From positions 1-36,738 of IMG/VR virus record IMGVR_UViG_3300035180_000276: 36,738 nt of DNA. One strand, 5' to 3'. A program made the position numbers and the translations under genes. Within the stretch, counting starts at the first letter, position 1, and each line of letters begins with the position of its first letter. Source of the stretch: a virus. The notes under the pieces are model-generated. The model searched no databases and was not told where the DNA came from. It saw nothing but the letters and a program-made list of their open reading frames with translations. Shown here one piece after another: positions 6,270-13,823 of the stretch.

Positions 6270-6962
6270 TCATTTCATGCTCCCCAATTCGGTCTCGACC
6301 AGCGTGAGGAAGTGGTTGATCAGGTGATCCGCTGCTGCCTCCGCCGCAGCCGCCTCCACCTCCGCCGCCCTCGCCCCAGCCGATACCCACACCGCCACCG
6401 CCGCCCACGCCGCCGCCTCCGCCTCCGCCGCCGCCTCCGCTGCCACCCACGCCGCCACTGCCGCCCACGCCGCCGCCTCCGCCTCCGCCTCCACCCACGC
6501 CACCCGCGCCGCATCGTTCATCGCGGCACTCGCCTCATCGCCAGCAAGCAGCGCACCGGAAATCGCCTCGGACGCCGCAACAACAGCGGGCCAATATGGC
6601 GCATCCGCAGGTGTAACTTTCGCCGCCGCCGCAAGTGCGCTGATCGCACATTCAGCCCGGAACAAGCGGCTGATCTTGGCCCATTGTTCATCCGTCAGAA
6701 CCGACCACCGGCTTTGCGCCATGGCATACCGCGTCACAAATTCCGGCCAGCGCGCTTCCGTTCCGGCGTCATCAATCCACAGCGTCAGATCGGCGACCCA
6801 CTGCGGCATCAAATGCGCCGGGCAACCTTCCGTCGATTGCGCGCCGGGAACCAAGGCGGCATACAGGCAAGCCGTATCCCGGCCTTTGTCATCGTACCCG
6901 GTCCATGCGTTGCGGATCAGTGTGCCTTCTTCAAGACGTTGCAGAATTTGGTTCATTGTCAT
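6270..6962 (-). CDS. Ala-rich accessory protein, last gene of minus operon
   Basis: The ATG at 6962 follows AGAGGA at good spacing and overlaps the previous small frame by ATGA. The 230-residue product has an ordinary N-terminal part (LQRLEEGTLIRNAWTGYDDK; CPAHLMPQWVADLTLWIDD; WPEFVTRYAMAQSRW). The Ala-rich C-terminal half repeats AEAEAAAWAAVA and ends DHLINHFLTLVETELGSMK. The Ala/Glu/Trp repeat should be helical. No function is recognised. Confidence 0.75.
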   Translation of the reverse strand: MTMNQILQRLEEGTLIRNAWTGYDDKGRDTACLYAALVPGAQSTEGCPAHLMPQWVADLTLWIDDAGTEARWPEFVTRYAMAQSRWSVLTDEQWAKISRLFRAECAISALAAAAKVTPADAPYWPAVVAASEAISGALLAGDEASAAMNDAARVAWVEAEAEAAAWAAVAAWVAAEAAAEAEAAAWAAVAVWVSAGARAAEVEAAAAEAAADHLINHFLTLVETELGSMK

Positions 6963-7075
6963 ACTTTCATCCTCTCTTGGGCATATCTGCCCCGTTGATC
7001 CGCCATCGCAGCGGCAAGGCCGGAGAAGGCCCGCCGCACAACGCCGCTCCGCTCGCAGCCGATCAGGACGCGCAT
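6959..7075 (-). pseudogene. Truncated DNA cytosine methyltransferase remnant (38 codons)
   Basis: The ATG overlaps the upstream stop (TGATG) and the TGA overlaps the next start (ATGA), so the frame is built into the operon. It begins MRVLIGCERSGVVRRAF, the N-terminal cofactor-binding motif I region of phage cytosine-C5-type methyltransferases (usual form IGCEFSGVVR). The match ends after about 17 residues; the rest (SGLAAAMADQRGRYAQERMKV split over two parts) is unrelated. A large internal deletion of a methyltransferase gene is the simplest reading. It cannot be catalytic. Confidence 0.6.
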
Positions 7076-7308
7076 CACAGCCACCCCATCCAGCGGACGG
7101 CATAGCCGAACGCAAAACCGACCGTGGGCATCGTTGCCAGAATGACTACCAGCCCGACATGCACCCCGGCGTCTTGCTCGCTCGGCTGAGGTGCCAGCGG
7201 CAGAAACCCATAGCCGATGGCTTTCAGTTCGGCCTCAGTCAGCTTGCGCAGCGGCGGCGTCGGCTCGGCGGTACCCAGCCAGAGAGTGATGTTCCGGAGA
7301 ATGTCCAT
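7075..7308 (-). CDS. Small membrane protein, N-terminal paralogue of gene 8009-8188
   Basis: The ATG at 7308 overlaps the stop of the aaRS-like gene (TAATG). The product has 77 residues. Residues 1-38 (MDILRNITLWLG, then KLTEAELKAIGYGF) closely match the protein encoded on the other side of the aaRS-like gene. The C-terminal part differs: one membrane helix (VGLVVILATMPTVGFAFG). Function is unknown. The duplicated N-terminal part may be a recognition or docking segment. Confidence 0.7.
   Translation of the reverse strand: MDILRNITLWLGTAEPTPPLRKLTEAELKAIGYGFLPLAPQPSEQDAGVHVGLVVILATMPTVGFAFGYAVRWMGWL
7203..7236. repeat. 34-bp perfect direct repeat, copy 1
   Basis: Bases 7203-7236 are identical to 8083-8116 and lie inside the duplicated 5' segments of genes 7075-7308 and 8009-8188. 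The two copies flank the aaRS-like gene, 880 bp apart. Confidence 0.9.
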
Positions 7309-8370: not shown

Positions 8371-8576
8371 GCGTCCCGCCCGATAGCGGCCAGACCGAAG
8401 CCCATTTCCTCGACCGTATCCTGCATGTGGCTTTCGGACAGCGTGATCCATTGCGCCGTCGTGCGGTCGCAGAATGTGCCCATGCCGCGCTCCTCGGCGC
8501 GAACGGCGATGCTGAGCGTCGCGGCAAGCCGCTGTGCCGCATCAAGCGCCTTTTCCAAATCTCGCATATCGGTCAC
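8367..8576 (-). CDS. Small helical accessory protein
   Basis: Start is GTG at 8576 (GTGA overlap with the previous stop) or ATG at 8567. The product of up to 69 residues begins with a predicted helix (DLEKALDAAQRLAATLSIAVRAEERG), then CDRTTAQWITLSESHMQDT and a Gly-containing end. No known motif. It forms a link in the overlapping gene chain of the accessory operon. Confidence 0.55.
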   Translation of the reverse strand: MTDMRDLEKALDAAQRLAATLSIAVRAEERGMGTFCDRTTAQWITLSESHMQDTVEEMGFGLAAIGRDA

Positions 8577-8836
8577 TCCTGGGTCAGAAAACAGTTGAGG
8601 GTTTCAGCGTCGAATTGCGGGGTCCACGGGTGCCAACCCGGCACGTTAACTCCCATAGCGGTCAGTTGCCGCAGGCAATGGTTGCGCTGGCCGTAAGCCG
8701 CGTCGGCGTCCTCAATGTCACGCTTGCGGTCGTTTGGATCGGCGTACGCCGCCCGCGCTTCATAGCGCTGCGCTTTGGCGTGCTGGACACGCGCCTCGTG
8801 CAGCAGATCGGCGGCGATGTTGGAGTGGTCGGTCAT
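8573..8836 (-). CDS. Small hypothetical accessory protein (87 aa)
   Basis: The ATG at 8836 overlaps the stop of the octad-repeat gene (ATGA). The product MTDHSNIAADLLHEARVQH... is mainly helical and charged for 60 residues, then has GVNVPGWHPWTPQFD and a short end. No recognised domain. Context: third type of protein in the accessory operon. Confidence 0.55.
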   Translation of the reverse strand: MTDHSNIAADLLHEARVQHAKAQRYEARAAYADPNDRKRDIEDADAAYGQRNHCLRQLTAMGVNVPGWHPWTPQFDAETLNCFLTQE

Positions 8837-9450
8837 GCCGGCACCAGTTTTCCGCCGACTGCGCGATAGGCGACATTCGGCAGGATGCCGTCCTCGCCCA
8901 CGTATCCAATTGCGATCCGATAGCGCAAGCCATCCCACCATTTGATACTCAGGATGGACCATGAGCCCCCGGTGAGTGTGGACCTGTTGCCCCCGGTAAG
9001 GATGGACCCGTAGCCCCCGGTGAGGGTAGCCCCCTCGCCTCCGGCGAGGATGGACCCGTAGCCCCCGGTGAGGGTGGACCCCGCGCCCCCAGTGAGGATG
9101 GCCCCGATCACCGCGCCCCGCGCTCCGAGGCGGATGATTTCTGTCGTGGCGTCAAGCCTCGAACCGCAGAACACGACCTCGCCACGCGGAAACTTGACCT
9201 TGCCTTCCAGGGCAATCCAATCCTCAACTGCGACCACCAGCCAAACCGCATCATATGACCAGTCGGCCAGAAATCCATCACCGTAGCCCCACAGAAACCC
9301 ATGTAGGCCGTTTCCGCATTCGGGCGTGGGTTGCCAATCATGGCATTCTACCATCCCGGATCGGGGACAGACAAAACCGCCATAGCTGGTCATGCCGGCT
9401 GCGCAGGTGCGCAGGACATAGGCGGCAGATTTGGGCTTGCGTTCGGTCAT
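8833..9450 (-). CDS. Protein with ice-nucleation-like octapeptide repeats (DUF7666-like N-terminus)
   Basis: The ATG at 9450 is chosen because it overlaps the previous stop (ATGA); an upstream TTG in frame lies inside the previous gene. The product has 205 residues. Residues 10-100 (YGGFVCPRSGMVECHDWQP, then ECGNGLHGF and WLVVAVEDWIALEGKVKFP) resemble the small phage domain DUF7666. Residues 113-168 are seven octads of the form GGYGSILT / GGNRSTLT. The alternation YGS then xxS/A gives the 16-residue period of bacterial ice-nucleation proteins, whose consensus is AGYGSTxT. The end is VGEDGILPNVAYRAVGG. A beta-solenoid is expected; function unknown. Confidence 0.7.
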   Translation of the reverse strand: MTERKPKSAAYVLRTCAAGMTSYGGFVCPRSGMVECHDWQPTPECGNGLHGFLWGYGDGFLADWSYDAVWLVVAVEDWIALEGKVKFPRGEVVFCGSRLDATTEIIRLGARGAVIGAILTGGAGSTLTGGYGSILAGGEGATLTGGYGSILTGGNRSTLTGGSWSILSIKWWDGLRYRIAIGYVGEDGILPNVAYRAVGGKLVPA

Positions 9451-9809
9451 TCTTGCACCCAATCCGACAGATCGCAGGGCCGGGACGAGGCCGGGATTTC
9501 GTCAATGTCGCCCTGCAGGCCGGAACAGTTTCCCCGCAGGCCGGTGCAGTTGCCCCGCAGGCCAGTGCATTTACCCCGCAGGCCGGAACAGTCGCCCCGC
9601 AGGTCGGTGCAGTCACCCTGCAGACCGGAACAGTCGCCCCGCAGGCCGGAGCATTTGCCCCATAGGCCGAAGCATTTGCCCCACAGGCCGGTGCAGTTTC
9701 CGCGCAGGTCGGTACAGTCTCCGGTCATATCCGGGTTCGGCCCCATCACCATCACGCCATCGGCGAAGTGATACAGGGCGGGCGCGGTGCGCGTCAGTGG
9801 CTTGGTCAT
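9447..9809 (-). CDS. Cys-rich heptapeptide-repeat protein C (11 units)
   Basis: The ATG at 9809 overlaps the previous stop (ATGA). Product: 120 residues = 28-residue N-cap (MTKPLTRTAPALYHF...) + 11 heptads of the form xGDC(S/T)xL + 15-residue C-cap (PASSRPCDLSDWVQE). Cys and Leu recur every seven residues, so one Cys and one Leu column would stack in a solenoid. Two variant units carry Lys in place of Asp/Asn. It differs from pentapeptide-repeat proteins in period and in the Cys column. Function unknown. Confidence 0.75.
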   Translation of the reverse strand: MTKPLTRTAPALYHFADGVMVMGPNPDMTGDCTDLRGNCTGLWGKCFGLWGKCSGLRGDCSGLQGDCTDLRGDCSGLRGKCTGLRGNCTGLRGNCSGLQGDIDEIPASSRPCDLSDWVQE

Positions 9810-9873
9810 TCTTGCACCCAATCCGACAGATTGCAGGGCCGGGCGGACGCTGGGATAGCATCAATGTCGCCCC
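9786..9873. repeat. 88-bp perfect direct repeat, copy 1
   Basis: Bases 9786-9873 equal 10313-10400 without mismatch (offset 527). Each copy covers the 3' cap of one heptad-repeat gene, the ATGA junction and the first codons of the next gene. A similar but diverged junction lies at about 9440-9515. Confidence 0.95.
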
Positions 9874-10336
9874 ACAAGCCGGAACAGTTTCCCCGCAGGC
9901 CGGTGCAGTCGCCCCATAGGCCGGAGAAGTCGCCCCGCAGGTAGGTGCAGTATCCCCGCAGGAAGGTGCAGTTACCCCGCAGGAAGGTGCAGTCACCCCG
10001 CAGGAAGGTGCAGTCACCCCATATGTCAGAACAGTTGCCCCGCAGCCCGGCGAAGTCGCCCCGCAGCAAGGTACAGTTGCCTCGCAGGTCGGTGCAGTCG
10101 CCCCGCAGGCCGGAGCAGTTGCCCCGCAGTCCGGAGCAGTCGCCCCATATATCGGAACAGTCTCCCCACAGACCAGAGCAGTCGCCATACAGGCCGGTGC
10201 AATCGCCCCACAGGCCGGTGCAGTTGCCCCGCAGACCGGAACAGTCGCCGGTCATATCCGGGTTCGGCCCTGTCACCCTTTTATCAACGATGTAGTGATA
10301 CAGGGCGGGAGTGGTGCGCGTCAGTGGCTTGGTCAT
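9806..10336 (-). CDS. Cys-rich heptapeptide-repeat protein B (19 units)
   Basis: The ATG at 10336 overlaps the previous stop (ATGA). The 176 residues split as 28-residue N-cap, 19 heptads and 15-residue C-cap. The caps are nearly identical to those of protein A. Most units are (R/W)G(D/N)C(T/S)xL; a few replace Cys by Phe (GDFAGL, GDFSGL) or carry aromatic residues before Leu (CTFL, CTYL). Copy number is the main difference from its paralogues. It likely arose by tandem duplication. No catalytic motif and no signal peptide. Confidence 0.75.
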   Translation of the reverse strand: MTKPLTRTTPALYHYIVDKRVTGPNPDMTGDCSGLRGNCTGLWGDCTGLYGDCSGLWGDCSDIWGDCSGLRGNCSGLRGDCTDLRGNCTLLRGDFAGLRGNCSDIWGDCTFLRGDCTFLRGNCTFLRGYCTYLRGDFSGLWGDCTGLRGNCSGLWGDIDAIPASARPCNLSDWVQE

Positions 10337-10400
10337 TCTTGCACCCAATCCGACAGATTGCAGGGCCGGGCGGACGCTGGGATAGCATCAATGTCGCCCC
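10313..10400. repeat. 88-bp perfect direct repeat, copy 2
   Basis: Second copy of the 9786-9873 repeat, at the junction of proteins A and B. Exchange between copies would gain or lose one whole 527-bp gene unit in frame. Confidence 0.95.
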
Positions 10401-10800
10401 GCAGACCGGTGCAGTCGCCCCACAGGCCGGAGCAGTCGCCCCGCAGGTCCGTGCAGTTGCCCCGCAGACCGGTGCAGTCGCCCTTCAGGTAGGTGCAGTT
10501 ACCCCGCAGGAAGGTGCAGTCACCCCGCAGGTTGGTGCAGTCGCCCCATATGTCAGAACAGTTGCCCCACAGGCAGGAGACGTCGCCTTGCAGCAAGGTA
10601 CAGTTGCCCCGTAGGTTGGTGCAGTCGCCCCATAGGCCAGTGCAGTCGCCCCACAGGCCAGTGCAGTCGCCCCGTAGGTCGGTGCAGTCACCCAGCAGAC
10701 AGGAACAGTCGCCGGTGATATCCGGGTTTGGTCCCGCCACCCTTTTATCAACGATGTAGTGATACAGGGTGGGAGTGGTGCGCGTCAGTGGCTTAGTCAT
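10333..10800 (-). CDS. Cys-rich heptapeptide-repeat protein A (16 units), first gene of accessory operon
   Basis: Two in-frame ATGs exist (10806 and 10800). The one at 10800 is chosen because AAGGGGG stands six bases before it. Product: 155 residues = 28-residue N-cap (MTKPLTRTTPTLYHYIVDK...), 16 heptads and the C-cap PASARPCNLSDWVQE. One unit has Val for Cys (GDVSCL). A 21-base DNA period underlies the repeats. Being first in the transcript, it should be the best expressed of the family. Cytosolic, function unknown. Confidence 0.75.
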   Translation of the reverse strand: MTKPLTRTTPTLYHYIVDKRVAGPNPDITGDCSCLLGDCTDLRGDCTGLWGDCTGLWGDCTNLRGNCTLLQGDVSCLWGNCSDIWGDCTNLRGDCTFLRGNCTYLKGDCTGLRGNCTDLRGDCSGLWGDCTGLRGDIDAIPASARPCNLSDWVQE

Positions 10801-10830
10801 CTTCATCCCCCTTAGCGTCGTACCTTGGGG
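10801..10830 (-). promoter_or_regulatory. 5' leader hairpin covering the ribosome site of the accessory operon
   Basis: Read on the minus strand, the predicted transcript begins in a C run (CCCC-AAGG, from about 10830) and meets AAGGGGG just before the first start codon. The C run can pair with the G run of the ribosome site. This would make a small hairpin at the very 5' end that hides the site. Confidence 0.4.
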
Positions 10831-11477: not shown

Positions 11478-11642
11478 ATGCTGGTTCCAGACTTTATTGC
11501 CGCGATAGATTCAATGACTGAACAGGAGCGGGCCGACCTGGCCGACATGCTCAGGCTGGGCGGCGATCCTCAAGAATCGCCAAAAGACCGTCCCATGTCG
11601 CCGGATCGCGCTCCGACAGCCGAACCAGACGTTCCGTCTTAG
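11478..11642 (+). CDS. Doubtful small frame antisense to repressor end
   Basis: A 54-codon frame MLVPDFIAAIDSMTEQERAD... lies between the lipoprotein and repressor genes and overlaps the repressor 3' end in antisense. The first 30 residues look protein-like (an acidic amphipathic helix); the rest is the mirror of the repressor. No good promoter or ribosome site is seen. It may be spurious. Confidence 0.25.
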   Translation: MLVPDFIAAIDSMTEQERADLADMLRLGGDPQESPKDRPMSPDRAPTAEPDVPS

Positions 11643-11883
11643 GGGTGATGGCGAAGCCATAGAGTAACCATGCCAGAGACACGTCCATCCTCTGGCATAG
11701 CTTTGCCATACTTCCCAAGGCCGGTTCCTTGCCGTCCTTCAGGATCGAGTGCACATAGCCCTCGGCACAGCCTGCCTCCAACGATAGCGCGCGCATGGAC
11801 AGGCCCGTGCCGTCCATCACCTCGACCATTCTTGCACGCCAATCGCTCGCATCCATGCCGATGGCATCTTCCAGCGCGGACAT
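11551..11883 (-). CDS. CI-like repressor, XRE-family HTH
   Basis: A 110-residue DNA-binding protein. The helix-turn-helix spans about residues 27-50 (GLSMRALSLEAGCAEGYVHS) and is followed by SMAKLCQRMDVSLAWLLYG, the usual closing helices. It lacks the C-terminal peptidase domain of lambda CI, so RecA-driven self-cleavage is unlikely and induction must work otherwise. It is divergent from the Cro-like gene at 11945, with 61 bases between them, the classic lysogeny switch layout. AGAGGA precedes the ATG by ten bases. Confidence 0.85.
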   Translation of the reverse strand: MSALEDAIGMDASDWRARMVEVMDGTGLSMRALSLEAGCAEGYVHSILKDGKEPALGSMAKLCQRMDVSLAWLLYGFAITPKTERLVRLSERDPATWDGLLAILEDRRPA

Positions 11884-12482: not shown

Positions 12483-12631
12483 ACATCGTTTTGCACTGGC
12501 CGCAGGTAACGCTGCTGGTCCTCGGCCTTCTGAGCGTCGTGGTGAATATCGCCAAAGGTGATGTGATCGTTCCGATCATCGCATTTGTCGGCGAAATCAC
12601 GCTTCTCTATTCCGGCGGATTTTTCGGATGA
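12479..12631 (+). CDS. 50-residue membrane protein
   Basis: Overlaps its neighbours by ATGA at both ends. The product has two hydrophobic segments: VTLLVLGLLSVVVNIA (residues about 10-25) and VIVPIIAFVGEITLLYSGGF (29-48). Small two-helix membrane proteins are common in early phage regions; no function is inferred. Confidence 0.6.
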   Translation: MNIVLHWPQVTLLVLGLLSVVVNIAKGDVIVPIIAFVGEITLLYSGGFFG

Positions 12632-12804
12632 CCCATTCACATCCAGGCGCTGTCCAAGCTGGCCCGGATACCGCTGCGGGGGAACGCGTGGCAGCGCGCC
12701 GCGGCGGTCAACCCATTGCCGCGCCGACCTCCTCCCCGGTGCTGGCAACCGTCCCGGCTGGCCTGGCCCCCGGCCAGTCGGGACGGAACGAATTCCAAGC
12801 ATGA
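12628..12804 (+). CDS. 58-residue Pro/Ala-rich hypothetical protein
   Basis: The frame begins MTHSHPGAVQAGPDTAAGER and ends GQSGRNEFQA, overlapping the previous gene and the methyltransferase start by ATGA. Composition is disordered (Ala, Gly, Pro). Exact ATGA junctions at both ends favour translation; it may serve mainly to couple translation of the methyltransferase. Confidence 0.45.
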   Translation: MTHSHPGAVQAGPDTAAGERVAARRGGQPIAAPTSSPVLATVPAGLAPGQSGRNEFQA

Positions 12805-13823
12805 CAGACGCCCCGTTCATTTGGTTCGGCGGGAAGCGCCGTGTTGCCCCGATCATCTGGGACGCTCTTGGCGACGTGGATCATTATGTCGAGCCGTTCT
12901 TCGGTTCCGGCGCGGTACTGCTGCGGCGCCCCCAAAAGCCCGGCTGTGAAACAGTCAATGATGCTGACGGTCTCTTGGCCAATGCATGGCGTGCCATCAA
13001 ACTAGACCCGGCGGCAACAGCACATCATGCCGCAAACCCGGTGAATGAGGCTGATCTACATGCCCGTCACCTTTGGTTGGTGAATGCAAAGACCGGCATT
13101 ACCGAGCGGCTTATGGCAGACCCGGATTGGTTTGACGCCAAGGCGGCGGGCTGGTGGATGTGGGGTATCAACTGTTGGATCGGCAGCGGCTTTTGCAGCG
13201 GTGAGGGGCCGTGGATTGCCGAAGGCGGGGTGTTTCAAAAGCGGGACACCGGCCAAGGCGTCGACCGGCAACTGCCACATCTGGGGGACACCGGCAAAGG
13301 CGTCAATCGGAAACTGCCACATCTGGGGGACACCGGCAAAGGCGTCAATCGGAAACTGCCGAACGGACAACGCGAAGCCTTCCTTGCCGACTGGTTCGCC
13401 GAACTGGCCGAGCGCCTCGCCGATGTGCGCGTGGCTTGCGGCGATTGGTCCCGCATCACCGGCCCGAGCGTCTTGCGATCAGCGGGAGGCGTCTGCGGTG
13501 TGTTCCTTGACCCGCCTTATGACATGGACATGCGCACCGCCGTTTACGCCAACGAAAGTCCCTGCGCCAAGGATGTCTTGGCGTGGTGCGAAGCCAACGG
13601 GTCCGACCCATCCTTGCGCATCGTGCTTGCAGGCTATGACGGCGAACACAACCGGCTGGAAGATCAAGGCTGGCGCGTCCACGCATGGAAAACATCAGGC
13701 GGATTTGGCGGCGGGCGCGGTGGGCGCGGCGAGGAAAACTCCAGCAAGGAGCGCCTTTGGTTCAGCCCGAACTGCCTTGATCACGTGCGGCAGCGGGACA
13801 TGTTCAGCGAGGCCGCCGAATGA
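12801..13823 (+). CDS. DNA N6-adenine methyltransferase, D12 (Dam-like) class
   Basis: The 340-residue enzyme transfers a methyl group from S-adenosylmethionine to adenine in DNA. Motifs: FGGKRR at 9-14 (target-adenine/cofactor end), YVEPFFGSGAV at 29-39 (cofactor motif I) and DPPY at 237-240 (catalytic). Start at 12801 overlaps the previous gene by ATGA; a much longer upstream frame is ignored because its codon use and two short genes there argue against it. Residues about 147-187 hold 14-residue tandem repeats in the region that usually reads the target. Probably protects phage DNA from host restriction. Confidence 0.9.
   Translation: MTDAPFIWFGGKRRVAPIIWDALGDVDHYVEPFFGSGAVLLRRPQKPGCETVNDADGLLANAWRAIKLDPAATAHHAANPVNEADLHARHLWLVNAKTGITERLMADPDWFDAKAAGWWMWGINCWIGSGFCSGEGPWIAEGGVFQKRDTGQGVDRQLPHLGDTGKGVNRKLPHLGDTGKGVNRKLPNGQREAFLADWFAELAERLADVRVACGDWSRITGPSVLRSAGGVCGVFLDPPYDMDMRTAVYANESPCAKDVLAWCEANGSDPSLRIVLAGYDGEHNRLEDQGWRVHAWKTSGGFGGGRGGRGEENSSKERLWFSPNCLDHVRQRDMFSEAAE
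13272..13355 (+). repeat. Two perfect 42-bp tandem units in methyltransferase gene
   Basis: Units 13272-13313 and 13314-13355 are identical and encode LPHLGDTGKGVNRK; a diverged partial unit precedes them from about 13240. The period is a multiple of three, so gain or loss of a unit stays in frame. Confidence 0.9.

What the first reader, a model, noticed from the sequence alone, without database searches (positions are those of the whole stretch)
8833..9450. Ice-nucleation-like octapeptide repeats in a phage accessory protein
Residues 113-168 contain seven octads alternating GGYGSILT and GG(EG/NR)(A/S)TLT. This gives the 16-residue super-period of bacterial ice-nucleation proteins (AGYGSTxT AGxxSxLT). 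The N-terminal domain is of a small phage type (DUF7666-like). Finding two different solenoid repeat classes (octads here, heptads next door) in one operon suggests that regular rods are the point of this operon.
Basis: partly seen in the sequence, partly recalled or inferred. Interest (0 to 1): 0.75.

Follow-up and report, generated by a model that had tools for sequence, protein, structure and literature searches.

The report
Phage relative of ice-nucleation proteins
A small phage protein has the same three parts, in the same order, as the bacterial proteins that seed ice (head domain, repeated eight-residue rod, end cap), but its rod is far too short to be expected to freeze water; this suggests that ice-seeding proteins may have grown out of a phage gene family whose rod changes quickly.

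Summary
The octads are real. Window 8833-9450 (-) encodes a 205-residue protein: a globular N domain, about 6.5 octads, and a C-terminal cap. It belongs to the uncharacterised phage family PHROG 18079, which includes Bordetella phage BPP-1 Bbp36 ('variable region 2') and Burkholderia phage Mica gp52, annotated 'ice nucleation protein'. The evidence goes further: the N domain alone (E 1e-22) and the cap alone (E 7e-5; family cap profile 3e-10) match the N and C domains of genuine ice-nucleation proteins (INPs), so this is three-domain homology. It is not an INP: it has 3.5 coils instead of 30-70, no linker and no arginine-rich coils, and its own repeats miss PF00818. The phage family lacks the strict 16-residue alternation of INPs. 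AlphaFold gives an octad-period beta-solenoid with a cap. Relatives with identical N domains carry 2-25 octads, varying almost only in a 6-base slot. Rooted on order-swapped outgroups, INPs fall inside the phage family, but phage monophyly is not rejected (AU p 0.13). I found no discussion of N- or C-domain homology in the papers held. Function is inferred: a non-essential, fast-varying accessory protein, probably a multivalent binding rod.

The parts
8833..9450 (-). whole gene, 205 aa: N domain + octads + C cap; PHROG 18079 / Bbp36 family
   Evidence: translation; PHROG 18079 E 1e-36; BPP-1 Bbp36 hits the same PHROG at E 2e-162
9094..9429 (-). globular N domain (residues 8-119), homologous to the INP N domain and to DUF7666
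   Evidence: phmmer 1e-22 (residues 1-108) and family profile 1e-26 to 1e-28 against INP N domains; hhalign 99.8%, 7e-29; AlphaFold pLDDT 92.9
9298..9318 (-). CGNGLHG motif (residues 45-51); CG-x-GLHG invariant in 57 phage sequences, C and H lost in INPs (ENGLTG)
   Evidence: alignments A7 and A3
8947..9102 (-). octad array, residues 117-168 (6.5 octads), predicted beta-solenoid
   Evidence: AlphaFold strands at 133-135, 142-144, 150-153, 158-160; MinC-type beta-helix match Z 5.8
8836..8964 (-). C-terminal cap (residues 163-205), homologous to the INP cap
   Evidence: cap alone against INP caps phmmer 7e-5; family cap profile 3e-10 to 1e-6
9447..9809 (-). heptad-repeat gene 3, overlaps the octad gene by ATGA
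9806..10336 (-). heptad-repeat gene 2
10333..10806 (-). heptad-repeat gene 1
8573..8836 (-). next gene downstream, coupled by ATGA; no family match
11551..11883 (-). phage repressor upstream on the same strand
   Evidence: PHROG 2328/4/3037 transcriptional repressors

Best explanation
The gene encodes an accessory protein of a temperate tailed phage. It is a short, phage-borne, full-length homologue of bacterial ice-nucleation proteins: a DUF7666-type globular head, a 3.5-coil beta-solenoid of octads, and a cap that closes the solenoid. Shown by sequence: homology of head and cap to INPs, and membership of the Bbp36 family. Predicted: the solenoid and cap structure. Inferred: it does not nucleate ice (too few coils, no arginine-rich assembly coils). 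It is expressed with early or lysogeny-side genes, is dispensable for growth as reported for Bbp36, and works as a head held on a rod whose length and exposed turn residues change rapidly by repeat gain, loss and reshuffling. Such a rod would suit multivalent binding to a variable host or rival target.
For: Three-part homology to INPs; the INP N domain also hits DUF7666 (1.5e-5) as all 28 phage N domains do. Same PHROG as Bbp36. AlphaFold solenoid and cap. Identical N domains with 2, 4, 8, 13 or 19 octads and every one of 24 arrays distinct in two clusters; in 53 arrays silent sites are nearly fixed while a 6-base slot varies. Genes lie in and around early replication or recombination modules (ERF, DNA polymerase, helicases). 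INP activity collapses when six of twelve R-coils are replaced, and a 12-repeat construct is inactive (PMC10727499, PMC9418140). BMP-1 bbp36 is non-essential (PMC2884959).
Against: No functional data for any member beyond non-essentiality. The window protein's own repeats do not reach PF00818, and the start of its rod (residues 117-131) is modelled with low confidence (pLDDT below 50). The variability could be neutral slippage rather than selection for binding variety. Early expression is inferred from gene position only.
Confidence: 0.8

Rival explanations
1. The octads resemble INP repeats only by convergence: a low-complexity Gly/Thr-rich octad that any beta-solenoid might evolve.
For: PF00818 does not hit the window protein; similar octads occur in other contexts, for example with an order-swapped domain (P0006) or with a different N part in YdhT.
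Against: The non-repeat head (E 1e-22) and cap (profile 3e-10) match INPs independently of the repeats, with no shuffled control near those scores. The order head-octads-cap is the same.
Confidence: 0.04
2. It is a functional ice-nucleation protein carried by the phage to benefit the lysogen, as proposed for phage Mica (PMC7883832).
For: Full-length homology; a relative (L022) passes PF00818; Mica gp52 was annotated so.
Against: 3.5 coils, no linker, no R-coils; INP work finds constructs with few water-organising coils or shortened R-coils inactive. Octad number drops to 2 in relatives with the same head.
Confidence: 0.03
3. The head is an ADP-ribosyltransferase-fold domain that modifies or binds a host factor, and the rod positions it; INPs kept a version without the conserved Cys and His.
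For: All four PDB entries listed at Z 2 or more for the head model are ART-fold (Rhs1 TreTu 4.4, Arr 4.2 and 3.7, PARP13 3.7); the whole-protein model gives nearly the same set plus KptA, DUF952 and PARP16. C45 and H50 are invariant in phages and kept in outgroups but lost in INPs.
Against: Z below 5 is weak; Foldseek E is above 0.1. I saw no invariant acidic residue that would obviously complete an ART catalytic set.
Confidence: 0.3
4. The rod is a passive spacer and its length and slot changes are neutral repeat slippage.
For: Array length ranges from 2 to 25 with near-identical heads and shows no parity rule; VR2 variation does not appear to track host tropism (PMC2884959).
Against: Changes are confined to two codons, while silent sites of the six constant codons are nearly invariant, which simple neutral slippage does not predict.
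Confidence: 0.3

Closest known systems
Bbp36 of Bordetella phage BPP-1/BMP-1/BIP-1 (PHROG 18079; variable region 2)
   Same: Same family: head, octads, cap; same PHROG; gene downstream of the repressor in an early region
   Different: Window protein has 6.5 octads of TLTGG type with silent differences between units; BPP-1 has about 14 near-identical TATAG units
Burkholderia phage Mica gp52 'ice nucleation protein'
   Same: Same family, 39% identity over 93% of the window protein
   Different: TATAG octads; its annotators proposed a virulence role, which is not supported here
Bacterial ice-nucleation proteins (InaZ, InaX, PbINP)
   Same: Homologous head, octad-based beta-solenoid, homologous cap, same order
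   Different: INPs have a long linker, 30-70 water-organising coils in strict 16-residue alternation, 10-12 R-coils, and have lost C45 and H50
Pfam DUF7666 (PF24703)
   Same: Head domain; all 28 phage heads tested match at E <= 1, the best at 1.5e-11
   Different: Function unknown; the window member scores below the curated cut-off
Octad + DUF7666 phage proteins with swapped order (Dulem virus 38, Gordonia phage Spooky gp76)
   Same: Same two modules with conserved C-x-x-GLH
   Different: Octads first, head domain last, no INP-type cap seen

Membership tests
PHROG 18079 / Bbp36 family | profile match over head and repeats | tested here: met
   E 1.1e-36, residues 4-164; Bbp36 2e-162 and Mica gp52 4e-96 hit the same PHROG
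PHROG 18079 / Bbp36 family | head-octads-cap architecture | tested here: met
   alignment A1
Bacterial ice-nucleation protein (INP) | conserved ~110-residue N-terminal globular domain | tested here: met
   phmmer 1e-22, family profile about 1e-27, hhalign 7e-29
Bacterial ice-nucleation protein (INP) | 41-residue C-terminal cap | tested here: met
   cap alone 7e-5; family cap profile 3e-10
Bacterial ice-nucleation protein (INP) | PF00818 repeat match at the curated cut-off | tested here: not met
   no PF00818 hit at E <= 1 for the window protein; relative L022 passes with 52.6 bits
Bacterial ice-nucleation protein (INP) | strict 16-residue alternation with a Tyr ladder | tested here: not met
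   57 phage arrays lag-2 z -0.4 against +16 for INPs; in the window protein itself only a hint
Bacterial ice-nucleation protein (INP) | 30 or more water-organising coils plus 10-12 R-coils | tested here: not met
   3.5 coils and no R-coils; INP numbers from PMC10727499
Bacterial ice-nucleation protein (INP) | long flexible linker between head and repeats | tested here: not met
   octads start about 10 residues after the last head helix; the fetched INPs carry a much longer non-repeat stretch there
Bacterial ice-nucleation protein (INP) | ice-nucleation activity | not testable with these tools
   needs a droplet-freezing assay
DUF7666 (PF24703) | match at the curated cut-off of 27 bits | tested here: not met
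   window protein 17.7 bits, head alone 20.5 bits, E 7e-4; relatives 28-42 bits
ADP-ribosyltransferase fold | split-beta ART fold of the head | tested here: inconclusive
   all four head matches listed at Z >= 2 are ARTs, but Z is at most 4.4

The most novel reading that the evidence does not exclude
Bacterial ice-nucleation proteins descend from a phage accessory gene family with a fast-varying octad rod: one lineage lost the head's conserved Cys and His, gained a linker, locked the octads into a 16-residue two-face repeat, expanded them about tenfold and acquired R-coils for assembly.
Probability: 0.5. Interest if true: 0.85.

Novelty: new variant of a known kind. Interest (0 to 1): 0.68.

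Why it matters
INP specialists reported that they could find no structural homologues for the INP N- and C-terminal domains (PMC9418140). This phage family supplies sequence homologues for both, joined by the same kind of repeat, in small proteins that should be far easier to crystallise than a 1200-residue INP. It makes the origin of biological ice nucleation testable, and it gives the long-standing puzzle of BPP-1 'variable region 2' a structural context.

Tried and rejected
Convergence of Gly-rich octads: rejected by head-only and cap-only matches. A 16-residue super-period as a family trait: not found. Parity rule on octad number (expected if caps fit only whole coils): none (35 odd, 41 even; counts are by a loose pattern). 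Direct single-sequence scan of viral contigs: no relatives; the alignment query found 124. N-domain profile search of 390 genomes of the order of an Acinetobacter relative: no INP found; INPs came from 13 genomes via PF00818 in another order. DUF7666 outgroups in 95 and 247 genomes: only the already known loci. PDB sequence searches with the window protein and the head profile: nothing convincing. Foldseek against PDB: nothing at E <= 0.001. Recurrent neighbour genes: only general replication and recombination genes, no dedicated partner. Pfam 'Major surface glycoprotein' on the heptads and DUF4774 on the TATAG arrays look like low-complexity hits. Literature: Pfam 16 already listed BPP-1 under the ice-nucleation repeat (PMC554113 table), so the repeat-level link is not new; four INP papers searched do not mention phage.

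Full report
Observation. The gene at 8833-9450 on the minus strand encodes 205 residues with 6.5 octads (AILTGGAG STLTGGYG SILAGGEG ATLTGGYG SILTGGNR STLTGGSW SILS) between residues 117 and 168. The units are 24 bp long with some silent differences. The gene closes a minus-strand run: three heptad-repeat genes and the octad gene overlap by ATGA junctions, with a phage repressor further upstream (11551-11883). The window is a virus record of 36,738 bases with terminase, portal and primase-helicase genes.

Family. The protein matches PHROG 18079 (E 1e-36). A tblastn search of phage genomes finds Pseudomonas phage D14O, Burkholderia phage Mica gp52 and Bordetella phages BPP-1, BMP-1 and BIP-1. 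BPP-1 Bbp36 and Mica gp52 fall in the same PHROG. The alignment shows a conserved head, a variable number of octads and a conserved tail with the motif WD..RYR..IGYxGEDG..PN..Y. An alignment-based scan found 124 related stretches in viral contigs, of which 80 loci were kept, and 12 in genomes of Pseudomonadota, Bacteroidota and Gemmatimonadota. Bbp36 carries the annotated 'variable region 2'; a later paper reports, citing the original work, that bbp36 is not essential and that this variation does not appear to change tropism (PMC2884959).

Link to ice-nucleation proteins. With octads excluded, the window head (residues 1-108) matches nine INP heads at E 1e-22 to 3e-21 among 20,000 shuffled controls with no control hit, and the family profile does so at about 1e-27; profile comparison gives 99.8% and 7e-29. 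The window cap alone matches INP caps at 7e-5 to 7e-3, the family cap profile at 3e-10 to 1e-6, against a best control of 0.02. The INP head also hits DUF7666 (1.5e-5), as do all 28 phage heads tested. The window's own repeats miss PF00818, but the relative L022 passes it (52.6 bits, cut-off 27) together with DUF7666. So this is homology in the head and the cap with the same order of parts, not a likeness of repeats alone.

Differences from INPs. INPs have a variable linker, 30 to over 70 water-organising coils and 10-12 R-coils (PMC10727499, PMC9418140); the window protein has 3.5 coils and neither linker nor R-coils. INP octads alternate strictly (lag-2 z +16); 57 distinct phage arrays do not (z -0.4). 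Phage heads keep an invariant CG-x-GLHG (57 sequences); INPs read ENGLTG. Order-swapped phage proteins (octads first, head last) keep C-x-x-GLH, which suggests that the INP state is the derived one. A tree rooted on those proteins puts INPs inside the phage family, in the same starred subclade as the window protein, but holding phages together is not rejected (AU p 0.13), the INP branch is long and the columns are few.

Structure. AlphaFold on 29 sequences gives mean pLDDT 79.6, with strands about every eight residues through residues 133-160 and a stranded cap; residues 117-131 are poorly modelled. The rod and cap resemble the MinC beta-helix (Z 5.8, 74 residues, rmsd 2.7). The head alone is modelled at pLDDT 92.9. 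Its only four PDB entries listed at Z 2 or more are ART-fold proteins; with Z at most 4.4 this is a lead, not a result.

Variation. Phages with identical heads carry 2, 4, 8, 13 or 19 octads, and all 24 arrays in two clusters are distinct. In 53 arrays the 18 constant bases are nearly invariant even at silent sites, while the first bases of the two slot codons carry about 1.1 bits. The slot falls between the predicted strands, so it should sit at a turn of the solenoid.

Mechanism. Best supported: a capped, adjustable beta-solenoid rod attached to a DUF7666/INP-type head, made by a temperate phage as an accessory protein. Shown: family, three-part homology, variability. Predicted: fold. Inferred: absence of ice nucleation, early expression, multivalent binding role. 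The head may be an ART-fold domain that acts on or binds a host factor (0.3).

Prior knowledge. Pfam 16 listed BPP-1 among proteins with the ice-nucleation repeat (PMC554113), and Mica gp52 was annotated from a BLAST hit (PMC7883832). I found no discussion of head or cap homology in the papers held, and INP authors reported finding no structural homologues for those domains (PMC9418140). The library is limited to open licences, so a paper elsewhere could exist.

Noticed in passing
L137:8751-9560 (-) (E. coli K-12 ydhT): YdhT carries a long run of degenerate octads and the same C-terminal cap (family cap profile 6e-10) behind an unrelated N part; Komagataeibacter phage phiKX1_180 looks like the same architecture.
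   Followed up: partly
L138:823-1737, L141, L142: Phage proteins with the order swapped: octads first, then a C-terminal C-x-x-GLH (DUF7666) domain.
   Followed up: partly
53 TATAG arrays in related loci (fetched): Silent sites of the six constant codons are almost invariant while two slot codons vary; the first slot codon is mostly NAC or NAT with only its first base changing. No mechanism identified.
   Followed up: partly
9447-10806: Three tandem heptad-repeat genes (LxGDCTG) with identical 3' ends, apparently recent duplications; heptad proteins with the same C-terminal ending (SARPC...W) lie near the octad gene in L008 and L010.
   Followed up: partly
12585-13823: DNA methyltransferase gene with an internal tandem peptide repeat (HLGDTGKGVNRKLP).
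   Followed up: no
6270-7115 (-): Ala/Trp/Glu-rich low-complexity tail in an otherwise unmatched protein.
   Followed up: no
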